From the NCBI GenBank assembly GCA_900155495.1, contig FTLJ01001005.1, forward strand, positions 1 through 16,755: a DNA stretch of 16,755 nucleotides, read 5' to 3'. This stretch comes from Porogramme epimiltina (lineage: Eukaryota > Basidiomycota > Agaricomycetes > Polyporales > Polyporaceae). The notes beneath the pieces were generated by a model. It did no database searches. It was not told where the DNA came from and was given only the letters and a program-made list of their open reading frames with translations. Positions 2,506 through 16,470 of this stretch are shown here, piece after piece. How positions within the stretch are numbered: the stretch's first letter is position 1; every line of letters starts with the position of its first letter. The position numbers were made by a program, and so were the translations under genes.

Positions 2506-3599
2506 CTTCTGAGGGATTTATCAAAAGAAGCTCGCGTGCGACAGAGGGAATGCGACGCCGACCAACAAACCAAAGACGCCGCAGAGAGCACGCCCGCGGC
2601 GGAGGACAGTAGTCGTCGTTGGATGGGGGCCGGAGCGTGCATCACGCACCGTCATGGCGTGCGCTCACCGTCCGCTCCGCCGACGGGCAGGAGAGACGGA
2701 TCAGTGCCTGCTTCCCGGCACTGCTTGGAGAGCTTCGTGTCCTGGATCTGTCGCGCGGTGTGCTTCCAGGCGTCGCCAAGGGCTCCTGCGGGCAATGGGC
2801 AGTCTCCTCGGGGAGCGGGAGAAGGATGCGCGCACAACGGACGCAGGCCGCCTGCCGGGGAGGCCACCGTCATCGAGGGAGTCTTCCTGCCAGCCTAACA
2901 CGCTGCGCTCATCGACCCCCGCCGCGGCGAGCGCCACACCCCACTCGACGCCCGCTGAGAAGGGCCCGTTCGGGCGATTATTGCGTCCGCGCCAGGCGGC
3001 GCGTTTCCCTCTCTTGCACCCTCGCCTGTGCGCGGTGGCGCATCCACGCATGGGCAGAAAGCAAGGGCTGCATGACGCTCGCCATATGCGTGAGCCGGGG
3101 TGGCGCACGCGTGGAAGAAACTTCAGAGCCTCCAGCGCACCCCGCGGCTCCCCAGATCCTGAGTACTGAGTTCTGACGGTCATAAACTGCGCCTCGCCCA
3201 AAGTTCAGTGCGGACGAGCGCCGAGCGGCTGGAAGCTTGCGCGAGTTGGCAGGAAACGGGGTTCGAACGGGCCACACACCTCTGCGTCCTCGCCGGTGCC
3301 GCACCTGCGTCCGTCGTCGGGGTGGGAGGGGGACGTGTTCGCGAAAATAAGCGTGGCCCCGCCAAAGACTTGGGAATCCTGGGATGTGTGGCCGGCCAGC
3401 CACACCCACGTGGCACGCCCGCGGGAGATGCCGGCCCCGGCCCCGGGCGCGGCGCGTGGCGGACCGACGGACGCGTGGCGGCCTACGCCCCCGCCGCCAC
3501 TTTCGCGTTCAACGCGTCTACGGCTTGTTTGCGCGCGTCGCCGACCCTCTCCTAGTACCCCTCTCCTCGTTTGACGGCCCCCGCCCCCTTTCCACTGCC

Positions 3600-6500
3600 A
3601 TGCCCGTCACCGCAGCCCAGAAGACGGCCATTGAGGAGGTCATCAAGACCATTCTGGGGGCTACCAGCAAGCGCACCAAGCGGCGCCTCGCGGACATGTT
3701 TCTCGATCTGGTAGACAGGGCTTCATGGCCAGAGTATTACGAGGTTCGTCCCGTATCCCCTCTTGCTGCACGTCGGCGCCGTGGAGCCGATCGACGCGCC
3801 TCAGGTAATACCCCAGCCTCGTTGTCTCCATGGTGTCAAGTCGACCCTCGCTCAGAACAAGTACAAGCACACGCTTGACGTGTTCGAGGACCTCAATCTG
3901 GTCTTTCTCAACGCCCTGCACTATAACGAAGAAGGCAGTCAGATCGCGAAGGACGCAACCACGCTGAAGGTGAGACATCTGATTTCTCATGCTGGCCACC
4001 TTCCGTGATCTCGTCGTCTCCAAAGGGCATCTTGGCGAGCGAGTGGAAGCAGCGTTCCGTGCTCCCGACACCACCCTCCTCTCCCCCTCCGTCGTCCCCT
4101 CAAAAAGTGCACGCGCAGAAGGAACAGAAGGAGCGTGTTTCTGTGACACCGGCGCCTGCCAAGCCTCAACCTTCGTCGTCAAAGTCACGGCTCAAACCTT
4201 CGACTCCTGTGCCTGTGCCTATGGACGTAGACCCCACCCCAGCGACCCAGCCGACCCAGCTGCAGCTGCCCAAGGGTGCCCCGAAAACAACCCCTAAAAC
4301 GCCCGAGCTCCCCCCTTCTTCGGATATGGATGTGGATATTGGAGGCACGCCAGAGCCTGAGCCTATGGGGCAAGACGCGGCAAGGGACGACGAGATTGTG
4401 AGGCAATTGGAGAGGGGACTGCCTAGATGGGAGGGGTTCGCTGAGGTTGGCTGGGCACAGGACATATCTTCTGTGAGTATGCGCCCATAGCGTTCGCGGT
4501 TGGACGTCGTCGGTCCGTGTGCTGAGGGCACCGCAGGAGCGCATGATACAGGTCGTGGACTTGCTTTCCAACTATAGGGACGCGAGGTGAGTGTGGTGCT
4601 CGCACAGCCGGTGATGTGGTCTCATTCCATTGCGGAGGACAGCGGCAAGAGGCCTGCGGACAGTATCGAGAGTGTTCCGGAAGAGACGACTGTGCCCGAT
4701 TTATCTTTCAATGTGCGGAGTTGCTCCTCTGTACGACCGAGCCCTGACCCTGACCACCCAGCCACCCCATAGACCCCCCTGTCCTTCCGCCTCGTAGAGG
4801 TAAAACATTCATGTCCGAGGGGTTGGTCGTGACGGACGCTGACACTGCCGCCCAGAGCCGAACACGAGCGGGCCACTATGCGTCCGGCCAGGCGTTTGAC
4901 AAGGAAATGACCCAACTTTTCCTGAAGGCCCGCCGGTGCTGTGACGCAGGCACCGAGGCCTACGGTCGTATACTCGTGTTGCAGGTGCGTTTCGCGTAGG
5001 GCACGGCCCACGGCGCGCTTCGATCTCTCATTGGCACTCGCCCCAACACTTCTCCACCAGAGGCTCTACCACGCCCTCACGTCACCGCACCCGCCTTCAC
5101 CGCCACTCAGCTCGACGACCAACTTTGCGGGCCTGCCCGCGGGCCCAGGGAACGCTATGCCCCTGAACGCGGCCGAGGGCGACGGAGTTACCATGTTCCG
5201 CGTTTCGCTCAAGGACCGCAAGATCGTAGACGAAGTCCAGTTCAAGGGCTGGACCGTCCGACTGGCCGACTGGCTCCACCTCAGTAACCCGGACGACCCT
5301 AGCAGACCCACCGTTGGGCAGGTCTTCAAGTGCTACATCTCAGAAGAAGGGTGCGTCTGTCCGGATCCCGAATTACGCGGCACGTAATTGAGCGCGTTTG
5401 TAGTCCGCGAAAGGGGCAGTATGGCGTGACCGTCTGCTGGTACTACAGGCCAGAGCAGGTGAGTAGCTCGGGCGCCGACCACTACAAATTGCACCAACAC
5501 CTGGCTTCTATAGACGTTCCACCCCTCTGAGCGGCTGTTTTATGAGAGGGAGGTCCTGAAAACTGGTTCGTCTGTGATCGGCGCGCATCGCTACCATATT
5601 AACGTGCGAGCTGTGCAGGGCACTTTGTCGACCATCCGATCGAAGATATCATCGAGAAGATCGCCTGCCAGTTCACCGCTCGGCATGTCCGCGGTCGTCC
5701 ACGCCCCCCCTTCTGGTACCCGGGCTGGCCGCTGTACGTGTGCGACAATCGATATCACGAACGCGAGCGCGCTTTCGTGCGGATCAAGAACTGGAACTCG
5801 TGCATCCCGGACGAGGTCCGCAAGAACCCGGATTTCATGCCGATATACCCTTTCGAGAGCGCTGTCTTCCCGCGGCGCGTCGCGAGCCCGTTCCTCGCCG
5901 ATCCGGGGCTCAACACACCGGGCGGGATCGCCGACGCAAATACAAATACCTCCACCGGCGCGGGGGCTGGGGCTGGGGGTGTGGGGGACAGGGCGGACGA
6001 GAACGGCGCGACCGCGGCGGCGGCTAGTGGGCTGAGGAAAAGGCCGAAGAGGGCGGCTGCGGCCAAGTCGGACGCGGAGCGGCTTGCCGTACTCAAGGGC
6101 CTTGCACCTCTGACGAGCTCCTCTCACCACTCACAGCAGCAGCAACAGCAGCAACAACAACAACAAACGCAACACGCTGCGCCGCCTGCGCCTGCAAAGG
6201 ACGACCGCTCGATTATCGCCGCGGCGGGGGGTCTCGCAGCGCTCGGCCACAGTGCTTCGATGGAGGAGCTGCCATTCGAGACAGGTGTGCATGATCGCCG
6301 CCGTGGGTTCACGGACGTCTTCCACTGACCTCACCGCGCCGTCCTGCAGCGAGGTACTTTGACCGCGACCCGGAAACGAACGAGGTCCTGTGGTTCGCCG
6401 CGCCGCCGGTCGACATTGTGCACACGCCACCCCCGAGGCACAGCCTGGCGTATCTCGCGCACGTCGTGCGGAAGCGGAAGGCGTCCGCAGCGGCGGCGGC

Positions 6501-6681: not shown

Positions 6682-7039
6682 GTTCTGCTCGGCTGGGGGT
6701 TCTAGGGAGGACTCGGGACGGTGGTACGCTAGCGCGGCCGTTCTTCGGGCACCTCGCCTGTTGCGTATGTCGTGAACTTATTGTTTGTTTATGTCACAAT
6801 ACGGTTGAATATCGATGTAAGCTTTAGTGTTCTGCGCCGAGCTTTTGGCACGCCTTTGGCCAATCCGAGTTATCGTCTCCAGCCGTCGGGTGCAGTTGAA
6901 GGACTTGAGAGGAAGAAGGGGTGTCTGTTGCGCGAGAGCGGGGGTGGATACTATACATGTGTGCGTAGTAGGTATACAGTGCAGTGTCGATGTGTATAAG
7001 GATGTGAGGGTCATGAACGTCTACGCGCCAAAGCTCACG
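6682..7039. other. Convergent 3' intergenic region
   Basis: This 358-bp stretch separates the stop codons of the Rsc-type gene and the ADAL gene, which point at each other. Its AT content is clearly higher than in the flanking genes, particularly about 6775-6835 and 6940-7020, with TTGTTTGTTTATG and TATACATG/TATACAG-like stretches of the kind seen in fungal 3' ends. No canonical AATAAA was found. I see no gene in it. Confidence 0.6.
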
Positions 7040-8250
7040 TTAGTGAAAACGGGAGTCCATGCTCATTTTTGCCAACTTCTCGATCTCTGCCTCTGTCAGT
7101 CCGAGACCTAACGGCTGCTGTGCCATCAGGAGGGCATATTCCCCGAGCAAGGAGTTGCGGAACGGAAGAATGTCGTCGGTCTGAATAGAAGCGGCTTGAG
7201 AATTGGCATTGGGCGATGACGACAAGGGCACTCACGCAAATGGCGACAGGGTGGTCGTGTCCGAGGTAGTATCTGAGGTGGTGGGCGTCCAGGGAGGGCA
7301 CCGTCTTACAAAGCAGATTCGAGGACAAGCAGATCTCGATGCACATCTCCTCGGTGTGCACGATCTTCTTCGCGTCATCGTCGAGGAACGTGGCGTGGCC
7401 CAGCCTGTCGGGCTTGTATGACAGAAGCTGGAGCGTCTCCGGCGCGGGGCAGGATGTGACCTGTGTGTGGCCAAACGTTATTTTCTGCTGCGAGAGCGAG
7501 AAGGTTGATCTTACTTCGGCAATGTGAAGCGTGACACCGAGGCCCGCTTCTTTGGCAGCGCGGAAGTGCCGCTCAAACTCTGCCATATCGCCAGCCTGTC
7601 AAACCTCCCCGTCAGCCGTCCGCAACACACAGGGCCTAGGCAGCGACCGTGGCACCCACCGTCGGGTCCCCGCAGAGGTCGACGCCGACGACGCGGCGGC
7701 CCGCCCTGCGCAGGCTCACGGCGATCTCGATGCACTCCGCGGCGACGTCCGCGCTCATGCGCCGGTCCAGGCTCACGATGAGCGCGGCGCGCTCGGGCGG
7801 GTAGCGCTCGACCTCGGCGAGCACGGTCTCGACGTACGCGCGGCGCGTCATCGCGGGCGTCGCGCGCGGGCCGCTGCGCAGCTCGAGGTACGCCGCCTGT
7901 GGGGCGGGGCCGTCGAGGAAGTGCGCGAGGACGCCGCGGGCGGCGCGCGCGAGCGCAGCGGGCGTCGAGGTGAGCGCGTAGATCGCGGGGAAGAGGCCGA
8001 AGAAGTCGCCGAGGGCGTCGAGGGGCACGCCCGCGGCGAGCTGGGCGATGCTCGCTCTAATCGCGGTTGGGTCCGCGGTCGGGTCGGACGCGAGGTGCTC
8101 CGAGGCGAGCTCTTGGAGGAGCGGGAGGGGGATGGAGCCGTTTAGGTGGGCGTGGAGCTCGGCCTTGGGCAGGCGCTGGAGGAACTCGACCTGCTCGGGG
8201 GCCAGGCTTTCGAGCGCGGCGGCCGCATAACCCGCGATCTGGTGTGACAT
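7040..8250 (-). CDS. ADAL: Adenosine deaminase-like protein (ADAL, N6-methyl-AMP deaminase type)
   Basis: Exons on the minus strand are 8250..7660, 7595..7515, 7460..7236 and 7180..7040; 1038 nt, 345 residues, the usual length of the family. All three introns (64, 54, 55 nt) are in phase 0. Motifs of the zinc-dependent adenosine/AMP deaminase superfamily appear in order: LPKAELHAHLNGSI with metal ligands H33 and H35; VGVDLCGDP; LHIAE with H221 and catalytic E224; RLGHATF with H246; and CTDD with D301/D302. The Asn in HLNGS is typical of ADAL; fungal adenine deaminases and adenosine deaminases generally have HLEG or HLDG. ADAL enzymes remove methylamine from N6-methyl-AMP to give IMP, clearing modified nucleotides from RNA turnover in the cytosol; that activity is known for plant and human members and inferred here. 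The start is supported by the N-terminal fit; a CAG directly precedes the ATG, so a leader intron ending there is possible. It is transcribed divergently from the GPALPP gene. Confidence 0.92.
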
Positions 8251-8676
8251 CTGTATAGGTTGTGTAGGTAGAAGAGAGAAGGGTGGGTAGGATGCGCGGA
8301 GTGTCCTCCGATGCTCTTAACTGCGGAGAAAAAACTTGGCGAATGAAATGCGCTATATCGCAGCCGAGCTGAACCTCGTGGGTGTGGTTTGGGGTGACTC
8401 GCGCAGGGTCACTGGCCTGCGGGATTACGGCAAATATGAGGCTCTTTCATTGATGAGGAAGAACAAACCACCATAGACTCACCAGTTGACGTCGGGAGAA
8501 AAAGCTGGACGAGTCAGGATCGCCACCGGCTCAACGACGGCATCCCGTCCGGGATCGCCGGTCCGCGCCACGGACGTCCTCCCGCTCCGTTCCCCACAGC
8601 GCGCTCGCTCCAAGTTTGTTCTGGACGTCCACCACTTCGAACCACTGCTTATCCGCCTGCACCCTCGGGATTGTCA
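8251..8676. promoter_or_regulatory. Shared divergent promoter region of ADAL and GPALPP genes
   Basis: These 426 bp lie between two start codons on opposite strands, so both promoters must be here or overlap upstream genes. Visible elements are a pyrimidine-rich leader on the minus strand before ADAL (about 8260-8300), a GCTATATCGC stretch near 8350 and a CRE-like TGACGTCG at 8487-8494. No protein gene is supported. Confidence 0.6.
8487..8494. promoter_or_regulatory. CRE-like site TGACGTCG in the divergent promoter
   Basis: The octamer matches seven of eight bases of the ATF/CREB palindrome and lies 183 bp before the GPALPP start and 237 bp before the ADAL start. It is the same variant as the one at 2498. 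Confidence 0.3.
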
Positions 8677-9920
8677 ATGATTGGACCCGACATTCCAGCC
8701 CATCTCCTCGCGCAGCCCTCGTCCTCGGCGGCAGAAGACGACACGTCCGACAACGAGGCCGGCCCTGCTCCCCCCATTGGCCCGCAGATCCCCATCGGGC
8801 CCCAGGTCCCTCCCACCGTCTCAGCAGCTACCAAGGGCCCGCCTGCGCCTGTTGAGGACGAAGACGACGATGACGAAGACTACGCGCCCGCCCTGCCGCC
8901 CCACCTTGCAGCCGCACGCGATGCAACCGCGAGGAGGGTAGTCGGTCCGACACTGCCCACCGCCGCGCCCCGGTATGCCGACGACAGCGACGACGACGAC
9001 GTAGGGCCGCAGCCACTGCCGGCGGGAGTGGTGCTTGAGGAGAAGGACGGAGTGCAGGAGTTCATGGAGCGAGAGGAGAGGCGAAGGAAGCAGCTGGAGG
9101 TACGTGTCGGACCTGCGTTCAACACTCCGCCACCGTCTGCATATGGCGTGCGGGGCAACCACGCTACGTGTCCGACGGCGTCCCCGTCCTGCAGGCCCGT
9201 ACAAAGACCACGCCCGACTGACGTCCCCATTAGGAAGGGTCGAAACCGAAAGCCTTGAAGCGAGAAGAGTGGATGCTCGTCCCGCCGTCCTCGTCCGACC
9301 TCCTCGGATGTACGTCACCCCGTCCCCTTCTCCCTGCCGCCTCCCTACAGGCACTGACGCGCCCGTAGCGATCGATCCGACAAAGCTCACGCGCCCGCGA
9401 CAGTTCGCGCGCACAGCGCAGCCGTCGCGCAACGCGGACACGTCGCTGTGGACGGAGACGCCCGCGGAGCGGCAGCAGCGCATCGCGGACGAGGTCGCGG
9501 GGAAGCGGCGGCGCGCCGTGGACGTGGACCCCACCGAGGATGCGGGCGACACGCGCAAGCGGCGGCGGCACGAGGAGGAGGTGCGGCGCGGCGTCGAGGA
9601 GCACACCGTACGTCTTTCTTTCTCTCACTCTTTCTTTTTTTACTTTAGAGGAATGGACGTGCTTATGGGATTGTGTACAGAAAAAGATGCGCGGCTCGTC
9701 GCTGCTCGAGCAGCACGAGCGCACGTCTGCGCGCGCGGAAGCAGAGAAGGCGCGGCGCGGTGGCGACGACGAGGACGAGCCGCCCGCGATCTGGGACCAC
9801 GGGCGGGACATGGCGCTCGGGGGGCGGCTGATGGACGACAAGAGCCGGAGCAAGTTCATCCAGGAGGCGCGGGGGCTGGGCGACCGCTTCGGGAGCGGCA
9901 AGAGCGGAGGGTTCTTGTGA
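8677..9920 (+). CDS. GPALPP1: GPALPP motif / DUF3752-domain nuclear protein
   Basis: Exons 8677-9099, 9234-9309, 9351-9607 and 9681-9920; 996 nt, 331 residues. The N-terminus has repeated GPxxPP-like motifs: MIGPDIPAHL, IGPQIPIGPQVPP, YAPALPPHL, VGPTLPT and VGPQPLP, spaced by acidic Asp/Glu runs (EDEDDDDEDY and DDSDDDD). A KREEWML..PP segment, a KLTRPRQFART segment and a long charged Arg/Glu helix follow. The C-terminus aligns without gaps to the DUF3752 end (RGSSLLEQHE, then IWDHGRDM, then GDRFGSGKSGGFL). The start at 8677 is chosen because the family begins MIGP. Proteins of this family are poorly characterised and probably nuclear; no reaction is known. The first intron is long for this window (134 nt) and the second short (41 nt). 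The last intron has two usable acceptors, and I chose 9681 because it keeps the family spacing. Confidence 0.88.
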
Positions 9921-10511: not shown

Positions 10512-11924
10512 ATGTCCGAACGCCTCTCGCAAGTCTCTGGCCATCTCTCTGGCGCGCTCTCCCGCGGGCTGCTCGCGGGCGAGGTCGCCATCATCACCGG
10601 TACGCGCTCTCGCCTCGTCCTCCTCTCACGCGGGGAGGCTCCTCGCGGAGCCGCCTTCGCCGAGGCTCGGTGTTACGGCGTACTGACGAGAACGACGTGG
10701 GCTCTGTTTAGGTGCTGCTCAGGTACGGACGATCCGGGGAAATGACGTAGAGGGACGCGGACTGAACGGGGGGATGTGCGCTAGGGAATCGGCCGCAGCT
10801 GCGCGCTGCTCTTCGCGAAGGAGGGCGCAAAGGTCGTCGTCACCGAGTGCGTGCTTCTATCCTCGTCGCTGTCCGAGCCTCCTTGCTGACGACGAGAGTG
10901 CTGGCGTGCCTTTTGGCTTGTTACCCCACATTCGCATTTTCACGTGATATTTGGCTCCGGTACAGCCTTGACGAGAAGAAGGCGCAGGTCGTCGTGGACG
11001 AGATCAAGGCGGCTGGCGGTGACGCGCTCGCCGTCGGCGGGGATGTGTCCGCGGACGACTTCCCGGAGAAGGTGATCACTGCGACGATCAAGTGCGTAGT
11101 CCCGCGCGTATTGCGCAATACAGAAAGCGAGGCTGACGGAAACGTGTAGGAAGTTCGGCAAGCTTAACCACATTGTGAACAACGCCGGGTTCACGTACGA
11201 CCGGATGCTGCACACGACGCCCGACGACGCGTGGGACATCATCCTGAAGGTGCACGTCCGCGCGCCGTTCCGCCTCGTCCGCGCCGCTGCCCCGTACATG
11301 CGCATTAAGGTGAGTAGCAGAACGCACCACTGTGGACGAAGGGCAGGACCGGGGTAGAAGAGGACTGACGGCGGCTGGGGCAGGGGAACACGGAGAACCG
11401 GTCGATCGTCAACGTGTCGTCGACGTCTGGGCTGCACGGGAACGTGGGGCAGGCGAACTACGCGGCGGCCAAGGCGGCGGTTGTTGGGCTGACGAAGACG
11501 ATCTGCAAGGAGTGGGGCGCGTTCGGCGTGCGGGCGAACACGGTCGCCTTTGGGCTGGTGCAGACGCGGTGCGTGGTATTCTTGTCTTGTGCGGGAGGAG
11601 CCAGATGCTGAGACGAATATCGGTTGTGATGGGAAACAGGCTGACGGCGGCGAAAGAGGAGGGCGCGAGCATCGAGATTGACGGCAAGAAGGTTGCGTTG
11701 GGCATCCCGGGCGCGGGCAAGAACGCGAGTCTCGCGCACGCGATGATCCCGCTCGGCCGCGGTGCGACGCCCGACGAGGCGGCAGGCGGTGTCCTCTTGT
11801 AAGTCTCTCTTCTTGTCGTCCGTGCTCACGTGGCGAATGCTGACGGGTGTCCAGCCTGGCGTCTCCGCTGGCTGCATTTGTGTCGGGCCACACGCTGGAG
11901 GTTACCGGTGGCGCTGGCATCTAA
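10512..11924 (+). CDS. Short-chain dehydrogenase/reductase (FabG / 3-hydroxyacyl dehydrogenase-like)
   Basis: Eight exons: 10512-10599, 10712-10722, 10785-10846, 10966-11091, 11150-11309, 11384-11568, 11640-11798, 11855-11924; 861 nt, 286 residues. The Rossmann glycine motif TGAAQGIG (residues 29-36) is complete only when the 11-nt second exon is included. Other classical SDR signatures are an acidic residue after beta-2 (VVVTD, D54), NNAG (106-109), catalytic S162, and YAAAK with Y175 and K179. The C-terminus HTLEVTGGAGI fits the family end. The acidic D54 suggests NAD(H) rather than NADP(H). The fourth-helix position that is usually Asn is His (KVHV, H131), as in the dehydrogenase part of peroxisomal multifunctional beta-oxidation enzymes. 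There is no SKL-type peroxisomal signal. The Ser/Arg/Leu-rich first 25 residues could be a weak mitochondrial presequence, which is uncertain. The substrate cannot be told; 3-oxoacyl or 3-hydroxyacyl thioesters are reasonable guesses. Residues about 214-240 form an insertion before the last helix. Confidence 0.9.
10712..10722 (+). other. 11-nt microexon of the SDR gene
   Basis: GTGCTGCTCAG lies between a CTCTGTTTAG acceptor and a GTACGG donor. It completes the Gly codon begun in exon 1 and adds A-A-Q, finishing the TGxxxGxG cofactor loop. Both flanking introns (112 and 62 nt) have good branch sites (TACTGAC and ACTGAAC). Skipping it shifts the reading frame. Confidence 0.85.
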
Positions 11925-13847: not shown

Positions 13848-14110
13848 AAAAGAACGCGTGCGCGCGATCCTAGTGCTGCCCGAGCCCTGCGCCGCGCCAC
13901 CGTCTGCCCCATCAGAGCATGATTTCTCGAATCTGCCAGCGCACGTTCCAAGGTCGATGGGGATGGGCACCGCGCGATGCAGATGGCGGGAGAAACAGAA
14001 AGCGGAAGGGGGGTAAACAACGTCAGCGACCGCCTTCCCTAGCTCGGGCGCGACAGGGGCGCCGCGCGCCTTTCCCCACCCCGGGTACTGATGCGGAGCG
14101 CCCCCGAGCA

Positions 14111-14116
14111 TATATA
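14111..14116. promoter_or_regulatory. Orphan TATATA box
   Basis: CATATATAG lies in GC-rich DNA with no assigned gene on either side. On the plus strand it would start a transcript near 14140 running antisense to the end of the G-alpha gene. On the minus strand it would point into the gene-free region. The first plus-strand ATG (14140) opens only 56 codons. Confidence 0.4.
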
Positions 14117-14619
14117 GAGACCGACTCACGTTCTTGCTGATGATCGTGCTGCATCACCCCAACACCCCCCCGTGCATTCCCGCCGCCAGCACGCCCCGGC
14201 CGTTCCGGTGGGAGGCGTCGGGTGCGGAGTGCGTTGCGTTGCCCGCAATTGCGTCCGTGTTTTGTATCCGAGGGGTTTCGCGGCGAATGGCCGGCGGGGG
14301 CAGGAAATGAAAGAGCAGGTCATGATGAGTCACCATTGTCACGGATATGCGCGAGAAACATGACGAAAACGAAAGCGAAGGTGAATGGATGAAGAAAGGG
14401 AGAACGAAAACGGGAGAGCAGAATGATCCAGGTGCCGCGACGAAAAGAGAATGAGAACGGGGGAGAAGGCGAGCGGTCGAAGGGAAGCAGAAGCGGAACA
14501 ACGCGAAATCGTCGCCGGTGACAGCACGTGGGAGGTCGACAGGGCGGGCCCGGGTCTTAAAAATCGGCCGGACTACAGTACACATATACAACAGCTCCGG
14601 CTCCAAATAGATAGCGGTC

Positions 14620-14625
14620 AATAAA
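14620..14625 (+). terminator. AATAAA motif on the plus strand
   Basis: AATAAA followed by AAG lies 22 bases beyond the G-alpha stop codon, on the strand opposite to that gene. It could be a poly(A) signal for a transcript starting at the TATATA box about 510 bp upstream, or simply part of the AT-rich 3' end of G-alpha. Confidence 0.3.
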
Positions 14626-14647
14626 AAGCGTAGGAGACCGACAGCCT

Positions 14648-16470
14648 CTAGATCAGAGCTGCCGTTTCCAGACTGTTGCGTAGGATGATGCTGAGGGGGG
14701 AAGGGGGAGATAAAAGCAAGGCGCAACCGTAAGCGCAACGTTCTCTTGACGATCGGACCCGCGGCCAAAAGAATGTGCCAGAAGGGCGAAAGGGAGTGGG
14801 GAAGGAAAAGCGGGGTGCGAAGAAAAGAAGGAACCACTCACTCTGCGGGGACAAGAAAGACGACTGTCAGCGAACCCCACACACGGGACAGCCAGTGGGA
14901 ACCACCACGCACCTTCTACTGCAGCCATGACCACTCTCAGCATCGCGGTGTCAGTTGCCGTCGTCACGCTTACACGGGTGTTAGCTCCAGCCGTCCTGCG
15001 CGGGAACGGTCTTAGCGGCGGGTGGATGTCATGACGTACTGGATGTAGATCTCCCGCTCCTTGGCGTTCGCTTTCTGCGCGAGCCTCGCGAACCGCTTCT
15101 TGAAGTACTCGCGACCAGCTTTTGCGTCTCCCGCCTCGCCATCAAAGTCCTGCGGGGGTCCACATCAGGGTCAGCCGTCAGGCACCGGGGATCATCCGTC
15201 GAGCACGGACCGGGAAGAAGTTCTTAATGTCCGAGTGTTGCACTTTCTTCTCGAACAGGTCGTTCTTGTTCAAGAAGAGGATCTAGAAAACAAGGCGCTT
15301 AGCTTCGACGACAGGTGCTCCTCCCTACCCCCACCCGCATACGCTACATCGCGCGCGCATACATCGCGACAGCACTCACAATAGACGTCTGCTTGAACCA
15401 CTGAGAGTGACATATTGAGTCCCAGATCGTCATCGCGTCTTGCATTTGATTCTACGCGCGCGCGCTCGGTTAGTTCGCAAGCGTTGACAGGCATGCAACA
15501 CGATCGAGTCCACGTACGGCATCCTTGTCCTCGACGAGGCACTGATCGAACCCACTCAAGCTGACCAGGAAAAGAATACTCGTGACGTCCTGGAAGCAGT
15601 GAATCCATTTCCGCCGCTCGCTCTTCTGCCCGCCGACGTCGACCATGAGCATATCGTGGTCACGCAACGTGAACACCGTCTCCGTGATACCAATTGTCCG
15701 TGCACGCGCATGGACAATGTCCTGCTCGTTCGGGGCGTATGATGGCTCGAACAGCCGGTCGAGGTCTGCAAAGTAGTACAGCAGGCTGCAAGAGCGAGCG
15801 TCACGAGGGAGCACGGGGAGACCGTCATCAGCAGCCGCGGCGACGCGGGGACAGCGCGGGGAAGACGCACTTTTCTGGCAACGCCGCCTCGTTACCGCGC
15901 GCGTATGCGGCTTGCACATTCGGGTCCTCCCAAAGTCGTCGCAGGACGTCGCGGTATTCGGGTGGGTAGGGTTCACTGTCCTTGATGTCCGAGGCGTCCT
16001 CGACGTAGTGGACGATGTCGCGGTTCTCTTCCGATACGTCGAGCTCCATATCCTCCATAGCGGTGATGACCTTGTGGAGGCCATCCGTAAGGTTGTTGAA
16101 CACGAGCTGACGGTAGGATTCGATTTCTTGCGAAGAGAAGGGGACGCGGTGGATGAGGCGCATCTGCTTGAGGATGGTCGACTTGCCCGAGTCTCCCGAA
16201 CCGAGCAAGAGGACCTGGGGAAACGGGTCGGGGAGTGTTACGAGGATTCCGGGGACACGGGTGTGAGAAGGAGACCGACCTTGACCTGTTTGGCCATCTT
16301 GATCTTTGCCTAGCATACATGAAGTGACGATACAGCAGACGAGGTGAGGGCGCTGTAGAGGAGCAAGAGAGATGAATACGGACCTCCTTGAGGCTCTTCT
16401 CGGCCTCTCTGTGCATCCTCTTGTCCTCCTCGGTGATCTCCACCGCGCCAGACGACATACAAGCCCCCAT
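14648..16470 (-). CDS. Heterotrimeric G-protein alpha subunit
   Basis: Exons on the minus strand: 16470..16384, 16309..16280, 16214..15871, 15785..15518, 15451..15380, 15282..15211, 15149..15040, 14968..14913, 14842 (one base) and 14690..14648; 1083 nt, 360 residues, the normal G-alpha length. The N-terminus MGACMSS fits N-myristoylation at Gly2 and palmitoylation at Cys4, so the protein sits on the inner plasma membrane. Nucleotide-binding motifs are P-loop GSGDSGKST (44-52), switch I RARTIGITE with catalytic R181 and Mg-binding T184, DVGGQKSER (203-211) with Q207, NKND (272-275) and TTATDT (330-335). The tail ends LETAALI without the Cys used by pertussis toxin. It relays signals from seven-helix receptors, for example pheromone or nutrient receptors, to effectors such as adenylyl cyclase; the pathway cannot be told. 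Compared with common G-alphas, switch I has Ile for the second Thr and the segment before YYFADLDRL is shorter. It may be one of the expanded basidiomycete paralogues. A 30-nt second exon encodes AKIKMAKQVK. Confidence 0.93.
14842..14842 (-). other. Candidate single-nucleotide exon of the G-alpha gene
   Basis: On the minus strand the sequence is TCTTGTCCCCGCAG, then A, then GTGAGTGG. The exon before ends in G (14913) and the exon after begins with C (14690), so G+A+C gives Asp347. This restores the conserved Asp in the last helix and the exact number of residues after the TTATDT motif. The upstream intron is 70 nt with a CTGAC branch site; the downstream one is 151 nt, starting with a perfect GTGAGT. 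Two-step splicing in which the first splice creates a new donor would give the same RNA. Confidence 0.65.

What the first reader, a model, noticed from the sequence alone, without database searches (positions are those of the whole stretch)
14691..14912. Single-nucleotide exon in a G-protein alpha gene
Direct observation: on the minus strand, two back-to-back introns (14912-14843 and 14841-14691) leave exactly one base, A at 14842, between a strong acceptor (pyrimidine tract plus CAG) and a consensus donor GTGAGT. Joining G|A|C gives Asp. Family knowledge: G-alpha subunits such as Gi have 25 residues from the end of ATDT to the C-terminus with an Asp at the twelfth place; the spliced product matches both. 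Using the two outer splice sites directly breaks the frame. The only competing model I found uses a weak GTGGTG donor four bases further on, replaces Asp by Gly-Ala and makes the tail one residue too long. One-nucleotide exons have been reported very rarely, for example in a plant gene.
Basis: partly seen in the sequence, partly recalled or inferred. Interest (0 to 1): 0.88.

Follow-up and report, generated by a model that had tools for sequence, protein, structure and literature searches.

The report
One-base exon feeding two G-alpha tails
A mushroom-relative fungus gene for a G-protein alpha subunit is predicted to contain an exon only one base long, and that base would be spliced to either of two encoded endings, likely giving two proteins with different receptor-contacting tails; none of the 93 database gene models of relatives examined has the expected joint followed by either ending.

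Summary
On the minus strand, A14842 stands between a polypyrimidine-CAG acceptor and GTGAGT. Of 147 enumerated GT-AG solutions that keep the tail (30 one-intron, 117 two-intron), one gives the family's VED-IIL joint: the one-base exon. Orthologs agree: 77 of 77 proteins from short, transcript-like contigs read VED at the joint, whereas 0 of 93 NCBI/nr models have VED followed by either tail, and 28 of 93 end exactly in VEE, what reading through acceptor-A-GTRA (GAG TRA) would give. Those 28 include species of four orders of Agaricomycetes, so the layout is probably old and systematically mis-modelled.

Two further exons downstream (14148-14130, 13932-13912) encode another tail, DTIISKNIREIML, in the same phase, which also needs the A. 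Transcript-like orthologs carry either tail (43 A, 33 B, 1 odd), interleaved on a tree of protein bodies; one A/B pair is 96.4% identical up to the Asp. The one-base exon most likely joins to alternative last exons that swap the alpha-5 tail. No RNA from this species was available. One-nucleotide exons are known; one as hub for alternative tails was not found in print in ten searches.

The parts
14913..14968 (-). exon 8 (56 nt), ends GTA GAA G in phase 1
14843..14912 (-). intron 8 (70 nt), GTGCGT...CTGACAG...CCCCGCAG
   Evidence: branch-like CTGAC read by eye
14842..14842 (-). exon 9: the single base A, middle of the Asp codon G-A-C
   Evidence: orthologs
14691..14841 (-). intron 9a (151 nt), GTGAGT...CCCCTCAG, leads to tail A; if retained, GAG TGA stops the frame after VEE (347 aa)
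14648..14690 (-). exon 10a (43 nt with stop): tail A, (D)IILRNSLETAALI
   Evidence: 43 of 77 transcript-like orthologs have a tail of this length
14149..14841 (-). intron 9b (693 nt), same donor GTGAGT, distal acceptor GGGTGATGCAG, leads to tail B
   Evidence: predicted
14130..14148 (-). exon 10b (19 nt): (D)TIISKN
   Evidence: 33 of 77 transcript-like orthologs have a tail of this type
13933..14129 (-). intron 10b (197 nt), GTGAGT...GCTGGCAG
   Evidence: predicted
13912..13932 (-). exon 11b (21 nt with stop): IREIML
14648..16470 (-). whole coding span of isoform A (10 exons, 360 aa): 16470-16384, 16309-16280, 16214-15871, 15785-15518, 15451-15380, 15282-15211, 15149-15040, 14968-14913, 14842, 14690-14648; isoform B (11 exons, 359 aa) shares exons 1-9 and ends at 13912

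Best explanation
The gene encodes a heterotrimeric G-protein alpha subunit whose ninth exon is predicted to be the single nucleotide A14842, and this base would be spliced to either of two encoded last-exon sets, likely giving two proteins that differ in the receptor-facing C-terminal tail. Seen in the sequence and calls: exon 8 ends in phase 1 (G), both tail exons begin with the C that needs two bases before it, and the lone A between CAG and GTGAGT is the only GT-AG way found to supply the conserved Asp; both tail types exist in transcript-like orthologs. Inferred: the two introns are removed one after the other (intron definition in a recursive-like order, probably intron 8 first, because one base cannot hold both an acceptor complex and U1 at once); the GTGAGT donor, now at the end of a normal-sized exon, then pairs with the near pyrimidine-rich acceptor (tail A, perhaps the default) or the far G-rich one (tail B, perhaps regulated and tied to poly(A) site choice). 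Keeping intron 9 would stop translation at once (VEE). The tail swap would change receptor coupling, as the end of alpha-5 does in animal G-alphas (recalled).
For: Exon phases and sites; 1 of 147 solutions gives VEDIIL; 0 of 20000 shuffles hold CAG-A-GTGAGT; VED in 77 of 77 transcript-like orthologs (47 of 47 from the full-length search, 30 of 30 added by the tail searches), against VED plus either tail in 0 of 93 NCBI/nr models, of which 28 end in VEE; Asp invariant in both 26-row alignments; tails A and B both encoded behind the same A; A and B interleaved on the body tree, 20 changes among 74 rows against a shuffled mean of 24.7; P0133 and P0155 are 96.4% identical up to the Asp and differ after it; both tails keep the Pfam G-alpha score at 395.9 bits against 392.7 for the GA rival; alpha-5 modelled as a helix running into the tail in relatives with either tail.
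Against: No RNA from this species. No genomic DNA of the relatives was read, so the one-base exon in them is inferred from VEE ends. Labels cluster somewhat on the tree (12 and 22 of 500 shuffles as low) and the nearest neighbour shares the tail type in 49 of 77. One tail is 11 long (P0052) and one of length 13 is atypical (P0135, SVDSI end). The acceptor of exon 10b is G-rich and its intron (693 nt) is much longer than the others (61-151). The tail A model is poor at its end (residues 397-404 below pLDDT 50). No RNA structure beyond chance (z +1.44, 20 of 20 shuffles as stable). Pfam barely separates the models (3.2 bits).
Confidence: 0.87

Rival explanations
1. The one-base exon is real, but tail B is a relic or is hardly used in this species, so there is one working tail.
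For: Weak distal acceptor and 693-nt intron; no RNA.
Against: Exons 10b and 11b are intact, in frame, with GTGAGT and CAG sites, and the encoded 12 residues fit the tail B consensus of 33 orthologs.
Confidence: 0.06
2. Tails A and B in the databases belong to two old paralogous genes, not to isoforms of one.
For: Mild clustering of tail type on the body tree; clustering of the database at 90% identity hides most same-species pairs.
Against: Both tail exon sets lie behind one gene in the window; 20 changes of tail type on the tree, at least 8 forced by starred branches; A/B sisters at 96.4%. Among the fetched loci of this genome only those of the window's own contig matched the last 70 residues closely.
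Confidence: 0.04
3. A single intron with the GTGGTG donor at 14908 joins to 14690 and replaces Asp by Gly-Ala.
For: It keeps the frame with one intron; 52 of 93 NCBI/nr models read VEG at this place.
Against: Donor lacks G at +5; tail of 26; VEG in 0 of 77 and VED in 77 of 77 transcript-like orthologs; 3.2 bits lower with Pfam.
Confidence: 0.02
4. Intron 9 is normally retained and the product ends in VEE, as in many database models.
For: 28 of 93 NCBI/nr models end so.
Against: 0 of 77 transcript-like orthologs end so, though the tail searches favour full tails (47 of 47 in the full-length search alone); the product lacks the end of alpha-5.
Confidence: 0.01

Closest known systems
Single-nucleotide exon of Arabidopsis APC11 (PMC4674806; abstract and Discussion read)
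   Same: One base between a spliceosomal acceptor and donor, needed for the frame; removal of the introns one after another is the mechanism proposed there
   Different: Plant gene, described as constitutive with one downstream partner; proven by experiment. Here two downstream partners are predicted, in a fungal signalling gene
Single-nucleotide exon of Fusarium CYP621A P450 genes (PMC12940212; abstract, first third of the text and Discussion read)
   Same: Fungal, found through a phase conflict in a conserved motif, kept among orthologs, middle base of a codon
   Different: Base is G (AG-G-GT), ascomycete genus, no alternative partner described in the parts read; supported there by RNA reads. 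Here base A, Agaricomycetes, two tails
Alternative C-terminal exons of animal G-alpha-o (recalled; one search gave nothing useful)
   Same: Alternative splicing exchanges the C-terminal part of a G-alpha
   Different: Ordinary exon sizes, animal gene, no one-base exon
Recursive splice sites (recalled; named in the PMC4674806 Discussion)
   Same: Acceptor and donor back to back, stepwise removal
   Different: There nothing stays between the sites; here one coding base would stay in the mRNA
One-base-pair exon of placozoan mitochondrial cox1 (PMC5436844; search listing only)
   Same: Exon of one base
   Different: Mitochondrial gene, not spliceosomal

Membership tests
Single-nucleotide exon | One base flanked by acceptor and donor of good quality | tested here: met
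   CCCCGCAG-A-GTGAGT
Single-nucleotide exon | The frame and a conserved motif need the base | tested here: met
   VED in 77 of 77 transcript-like orthologs
Single-nucleotide exon | Same arrangement in orthologous genes | tested here: inconclusive
Single-nucleotide exon | RNA of the same species shows the base between the two exons | not testable with these tools
   no reads held
Alternative last exons | Two complete terminal exon sets in one gene, in a compatible phase | tested here: met
Alternative last exons | Both products found among transcripts | tested here: inconclusive
   both tail types in transcript-like orthologs, one pair 96.4% alike in body, but not shown for one species
Alternative last exons | Regulated use, or different function of the products | not tested
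   needs RNA from several conditions and receptor assays
Heterotrimeric G-alpha subunit | Full-length match to the G-alpha profile with P-loop and switch motifs | tested here: met
   PF00503, profile positions 2-333 of 333; aligned to Gi/Gt chains of solved structures
Heterotrimeric G-alpha subunit | Couples to receptors through its C-terminal tail | not testable with these tools
   recalled from animal G proteins

The most novel reading that the evidence does not exclude
Across mushroom-forming fungi (Agaricomycetes) a single-nucleotide exon, kept since before several of their orders split, is the switch point of a G-protein alpha gene: one base is joined to one of two terminal exon sets, exchanging the receptor-reading tail, and database gene models of it miss the true end in species after species.
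Probability: 0.7. Interest if true: 0.92.

Novelty: new variant of a known kind. Interest (0 to 1): 0.86.

Why it matters
One-nucleotide exons test the lower limit of splice-site recognition, and my searches turned up two nuclear cases. This one is likely conserved over several orders, lies in a signalling gene, and would double as the branch point of alternative last exons, so it is a natural system for the order of splicing around a one-base exon. It also implies that the C-terminus, the receptor-selective part, is wrong in the 93 NCBI/nr models of this group examined here (none has VED followed by either tail), which bears on work on mushroom G-protein coupling.

Tried and rejected
RNA structure over 14912-14130 as a guide of tail choice: no signal (z +1.44, 20 of 20 shuffles at least as stable). 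Genome-wide search for sites of the same form: 9 hits against 8 for the reversed control, so the motif alone does not point to other one-base exons; the other 8 hits were not examined for coding context. Pfam scores separate the models little (395.9, 395.9 and 392.7 bits). Structure models of relatives P0155 (tail A) and P0133 (tail B) have mean pLDDT 73.8 and 80.0 and are weak support only. Ten literature searches listed no report of this exon or of alternative tails in a basidiomycete G-alpha; the library holds no preprints and lacks most subscription papers. Old paralogs as the source of the two tails were tested and found unlikely; three transcript-like proteins under 300 aa (P0142, P0148, P0149) were left out of the tree, and P0052 (tail of 11) was labelled B in it. 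The first scan of loci for paralog tails read one strand only and was redone. Of 12 other contigs with G-alpha matches, seven showed a tail read across the joint in one frame, five of them only by weak matches (E of 0.09 to 9), and five showed none. The rest of the window was looked at only through ORFs and one Pfam scan.

Full report
What was checked. The gene was rebuilt from the minus strand. Ten exons, introns all bounded by GT and AG, give 1083 nt and 360 aa. The protein matches the G-alpha profile over positions 2-333 of 333 (PF00503, 395.9 bits). Its best database hit is a 'heterotrimeric G protein alpha subunit 4' of Daedaleopsis nitida, 92% identical over 96% of the query, a member of Polyporales. 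Between exon 8, ending GTA GAA G, and exon 10a, beginning C ATC ATC, lies the stretch of the finding. One base, A14842, stands between CCCCGCAG and GTGAGT. The flanking introns are 70 and 151 nt; the other seven are 61-97 nt. Both hold branch-like motifs, CTGAC and CTTAC (read by eye).

Is it forced? I listed the GT-AG solutions that keep the end of tail A, with introns of 40 nt or more: 30 with one intron, 117 with two. One of the 147 gives VEDIIL, and it is the one-base exon. No one-intron solution leaves 25 residues after ATDT. With GTNNGT donors and YAG acceptors two solutions remain, the other adding seven residues. CAG-A-GTGAGT arose in 0 of 20000 shuffles of the stretch, the loose YAG-A-GTNNGT in 61, and YAG-A-GT in 742. 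A 15-base form of the site occurs 9 times in the 41.9-Mb genome, against 8 for a reversed control.

What orthologs say. The full-length search listed the best 120 of 3571 matches; the two tail searches (best 120 of 184 and of 196) added 50 proteins. By their source columns 77 of the 170 come from JGI, Logan or ENA contigs of 1.1-3.2 kb; since these hold most or all of a many-intron gene as one reading frame they are probably transcripts (inference). The other 93 are NCBI/nr entries. All 77 have VED at the joint (47 of 47, 30 of 30 added later). Of the 93, 28 end exactly in VEE, 52 read VEG, 10 read VEA or VEV, one has VED but a wrong sequence after it (P0097), and 2 go other ways (P0164, P0165). 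VEE is what acceptor-A-GTRA gives when read through: G|AG TRA, Glu then stop. The window's own read-through would be 347 aa, the length of the Daedaleopsis entry. The VEE entries include Daedaleopsis nitida, Coprinopsis cinerea, Russula earlei and Punctularia strigosozonata, of Polyporales, Agaricales, Russulales and Corticiales. The tail searches favour complete tails, so the count is the fairer one. The DNA of these relatives was not available.

The second tail. Of the 77 transcript-like proteins 43 have 13 residues after VED (mostly I-V/I-L-R-x-N-L-x-x-A-A-L-I), 33 have 12 (mostly x-I-I/V-S-K-N-I-R-x-I-M-L) and one has 11 (P0052); P0135 has 13 but an atypical end. The window encodes both types. 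Downstream of tail A, exons 10b (14148-14130) and 11b (13932-13912) give DTIISKNIREIML in frame when joined to the single A; both tail exon sets begin with the C that needs G plus A. On a tree of protein bodies, tails left out, tail type changes 20 times among 74 labelled rows against a shuffled mean of 24.7 (12 and 22 of 500 shuffles were as low; three short proteins were left out and P0052 was counted as B): interleaved, with mild clustering. P0133 and P0155 are 96.4% identical up to the Asp and then carry tail B and tail A. The nearest neighbour shares the tail type in 49 of 77. This looks like isoforms of one gene sampled one at a time rather than two old paralogs. Five divergent rows (P0136, P0137, P0139, P0145, P0152) all carry B, which may hint that B is the older tail.

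Only this gene, as far as seen. Of 12 other contigs of the genome with G-alpha matches, seven show a tail that reads across the equivalent joint in one frame, five of them only by weak matches, and five show none.

How it most likely works. Seen: positions, phases, sites, and the tails in relatives. Inferred: introns 8 and 9 are removed in sequence, as was proposed for Arabidopsis APC11 (PMC4674806, Discussion). After intron 8 leaves, the exon ends GAAGA, and its GTGAGT donor chooses between the near, pyrimidine-rich acceptor (tail A) and the far, G-rich one (tail B). Keeping intron 9 would stop translation at once. The tail is the part of G-alpha that reads receptors (recalled), so the switch would alter coupling. 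Models of relatives put the tail on the alpha-5 helix: one helix 378-402 with tail B, 378-395 and 398-403 with tail A, the last eight residues of the latter at low confidence. No RNA fold that could steer the choice stands out.

Against what is known. One-nucleotide exons have been reported in Arabidopsis APC11 (PMC4674806) and Fusarium CYP621A (PMC12940212); the latter paper calls itself the second example and the first in a fungal gene. Listings also name mitochondrial cases (PMC5436844, PMC12308204; not read). [quoted passage not shown] Alternative C-terminal exons are known for animal G-alpha-o (recalled). One base as the common stem of two tails did not appear in ten literature searches. 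I file it as a new variant of a known kind.

Noticed in passing
window 7035-8250, minus strand: Two ORFs (7636-8250 and 7035-7586) match Pfam adenosine deaminase (PF00962; 31.3 bits, above the cut-off of 27, and 23.9 bits, below it), probably exons of one adenosine-deaminase-like gene.
   Followed up: partly
own genome, eight other places of YYYYNCAGAGTRAGT (loci L031-L036, L038, L039): Further acceptor-A-donor strings, no more than the reversed-pattern control; their coding context was not examined, so another one-base exon among them is not excluded.
   Followed up: no
database proteins P0136, P0137, P0139, P0145, P0152: Divergent relatives that all carry a tail of type B, which may mean that B is the ancestral tail.
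   Followed up: partly
database protein P0162 (Lactarius tabidus): Gene model reads VEG-T-IRDIML, as if the model skipped exon 10b and kept 11b, hinting that the intron between 10b and 11b is shared by Russulales.
   Followed up: no
window 8671-9258 plus; 3384-6328 plus; 10940-11920 minus: Other ORFs searched gave no Pfam match at E 0.001.
   Followed up: partly
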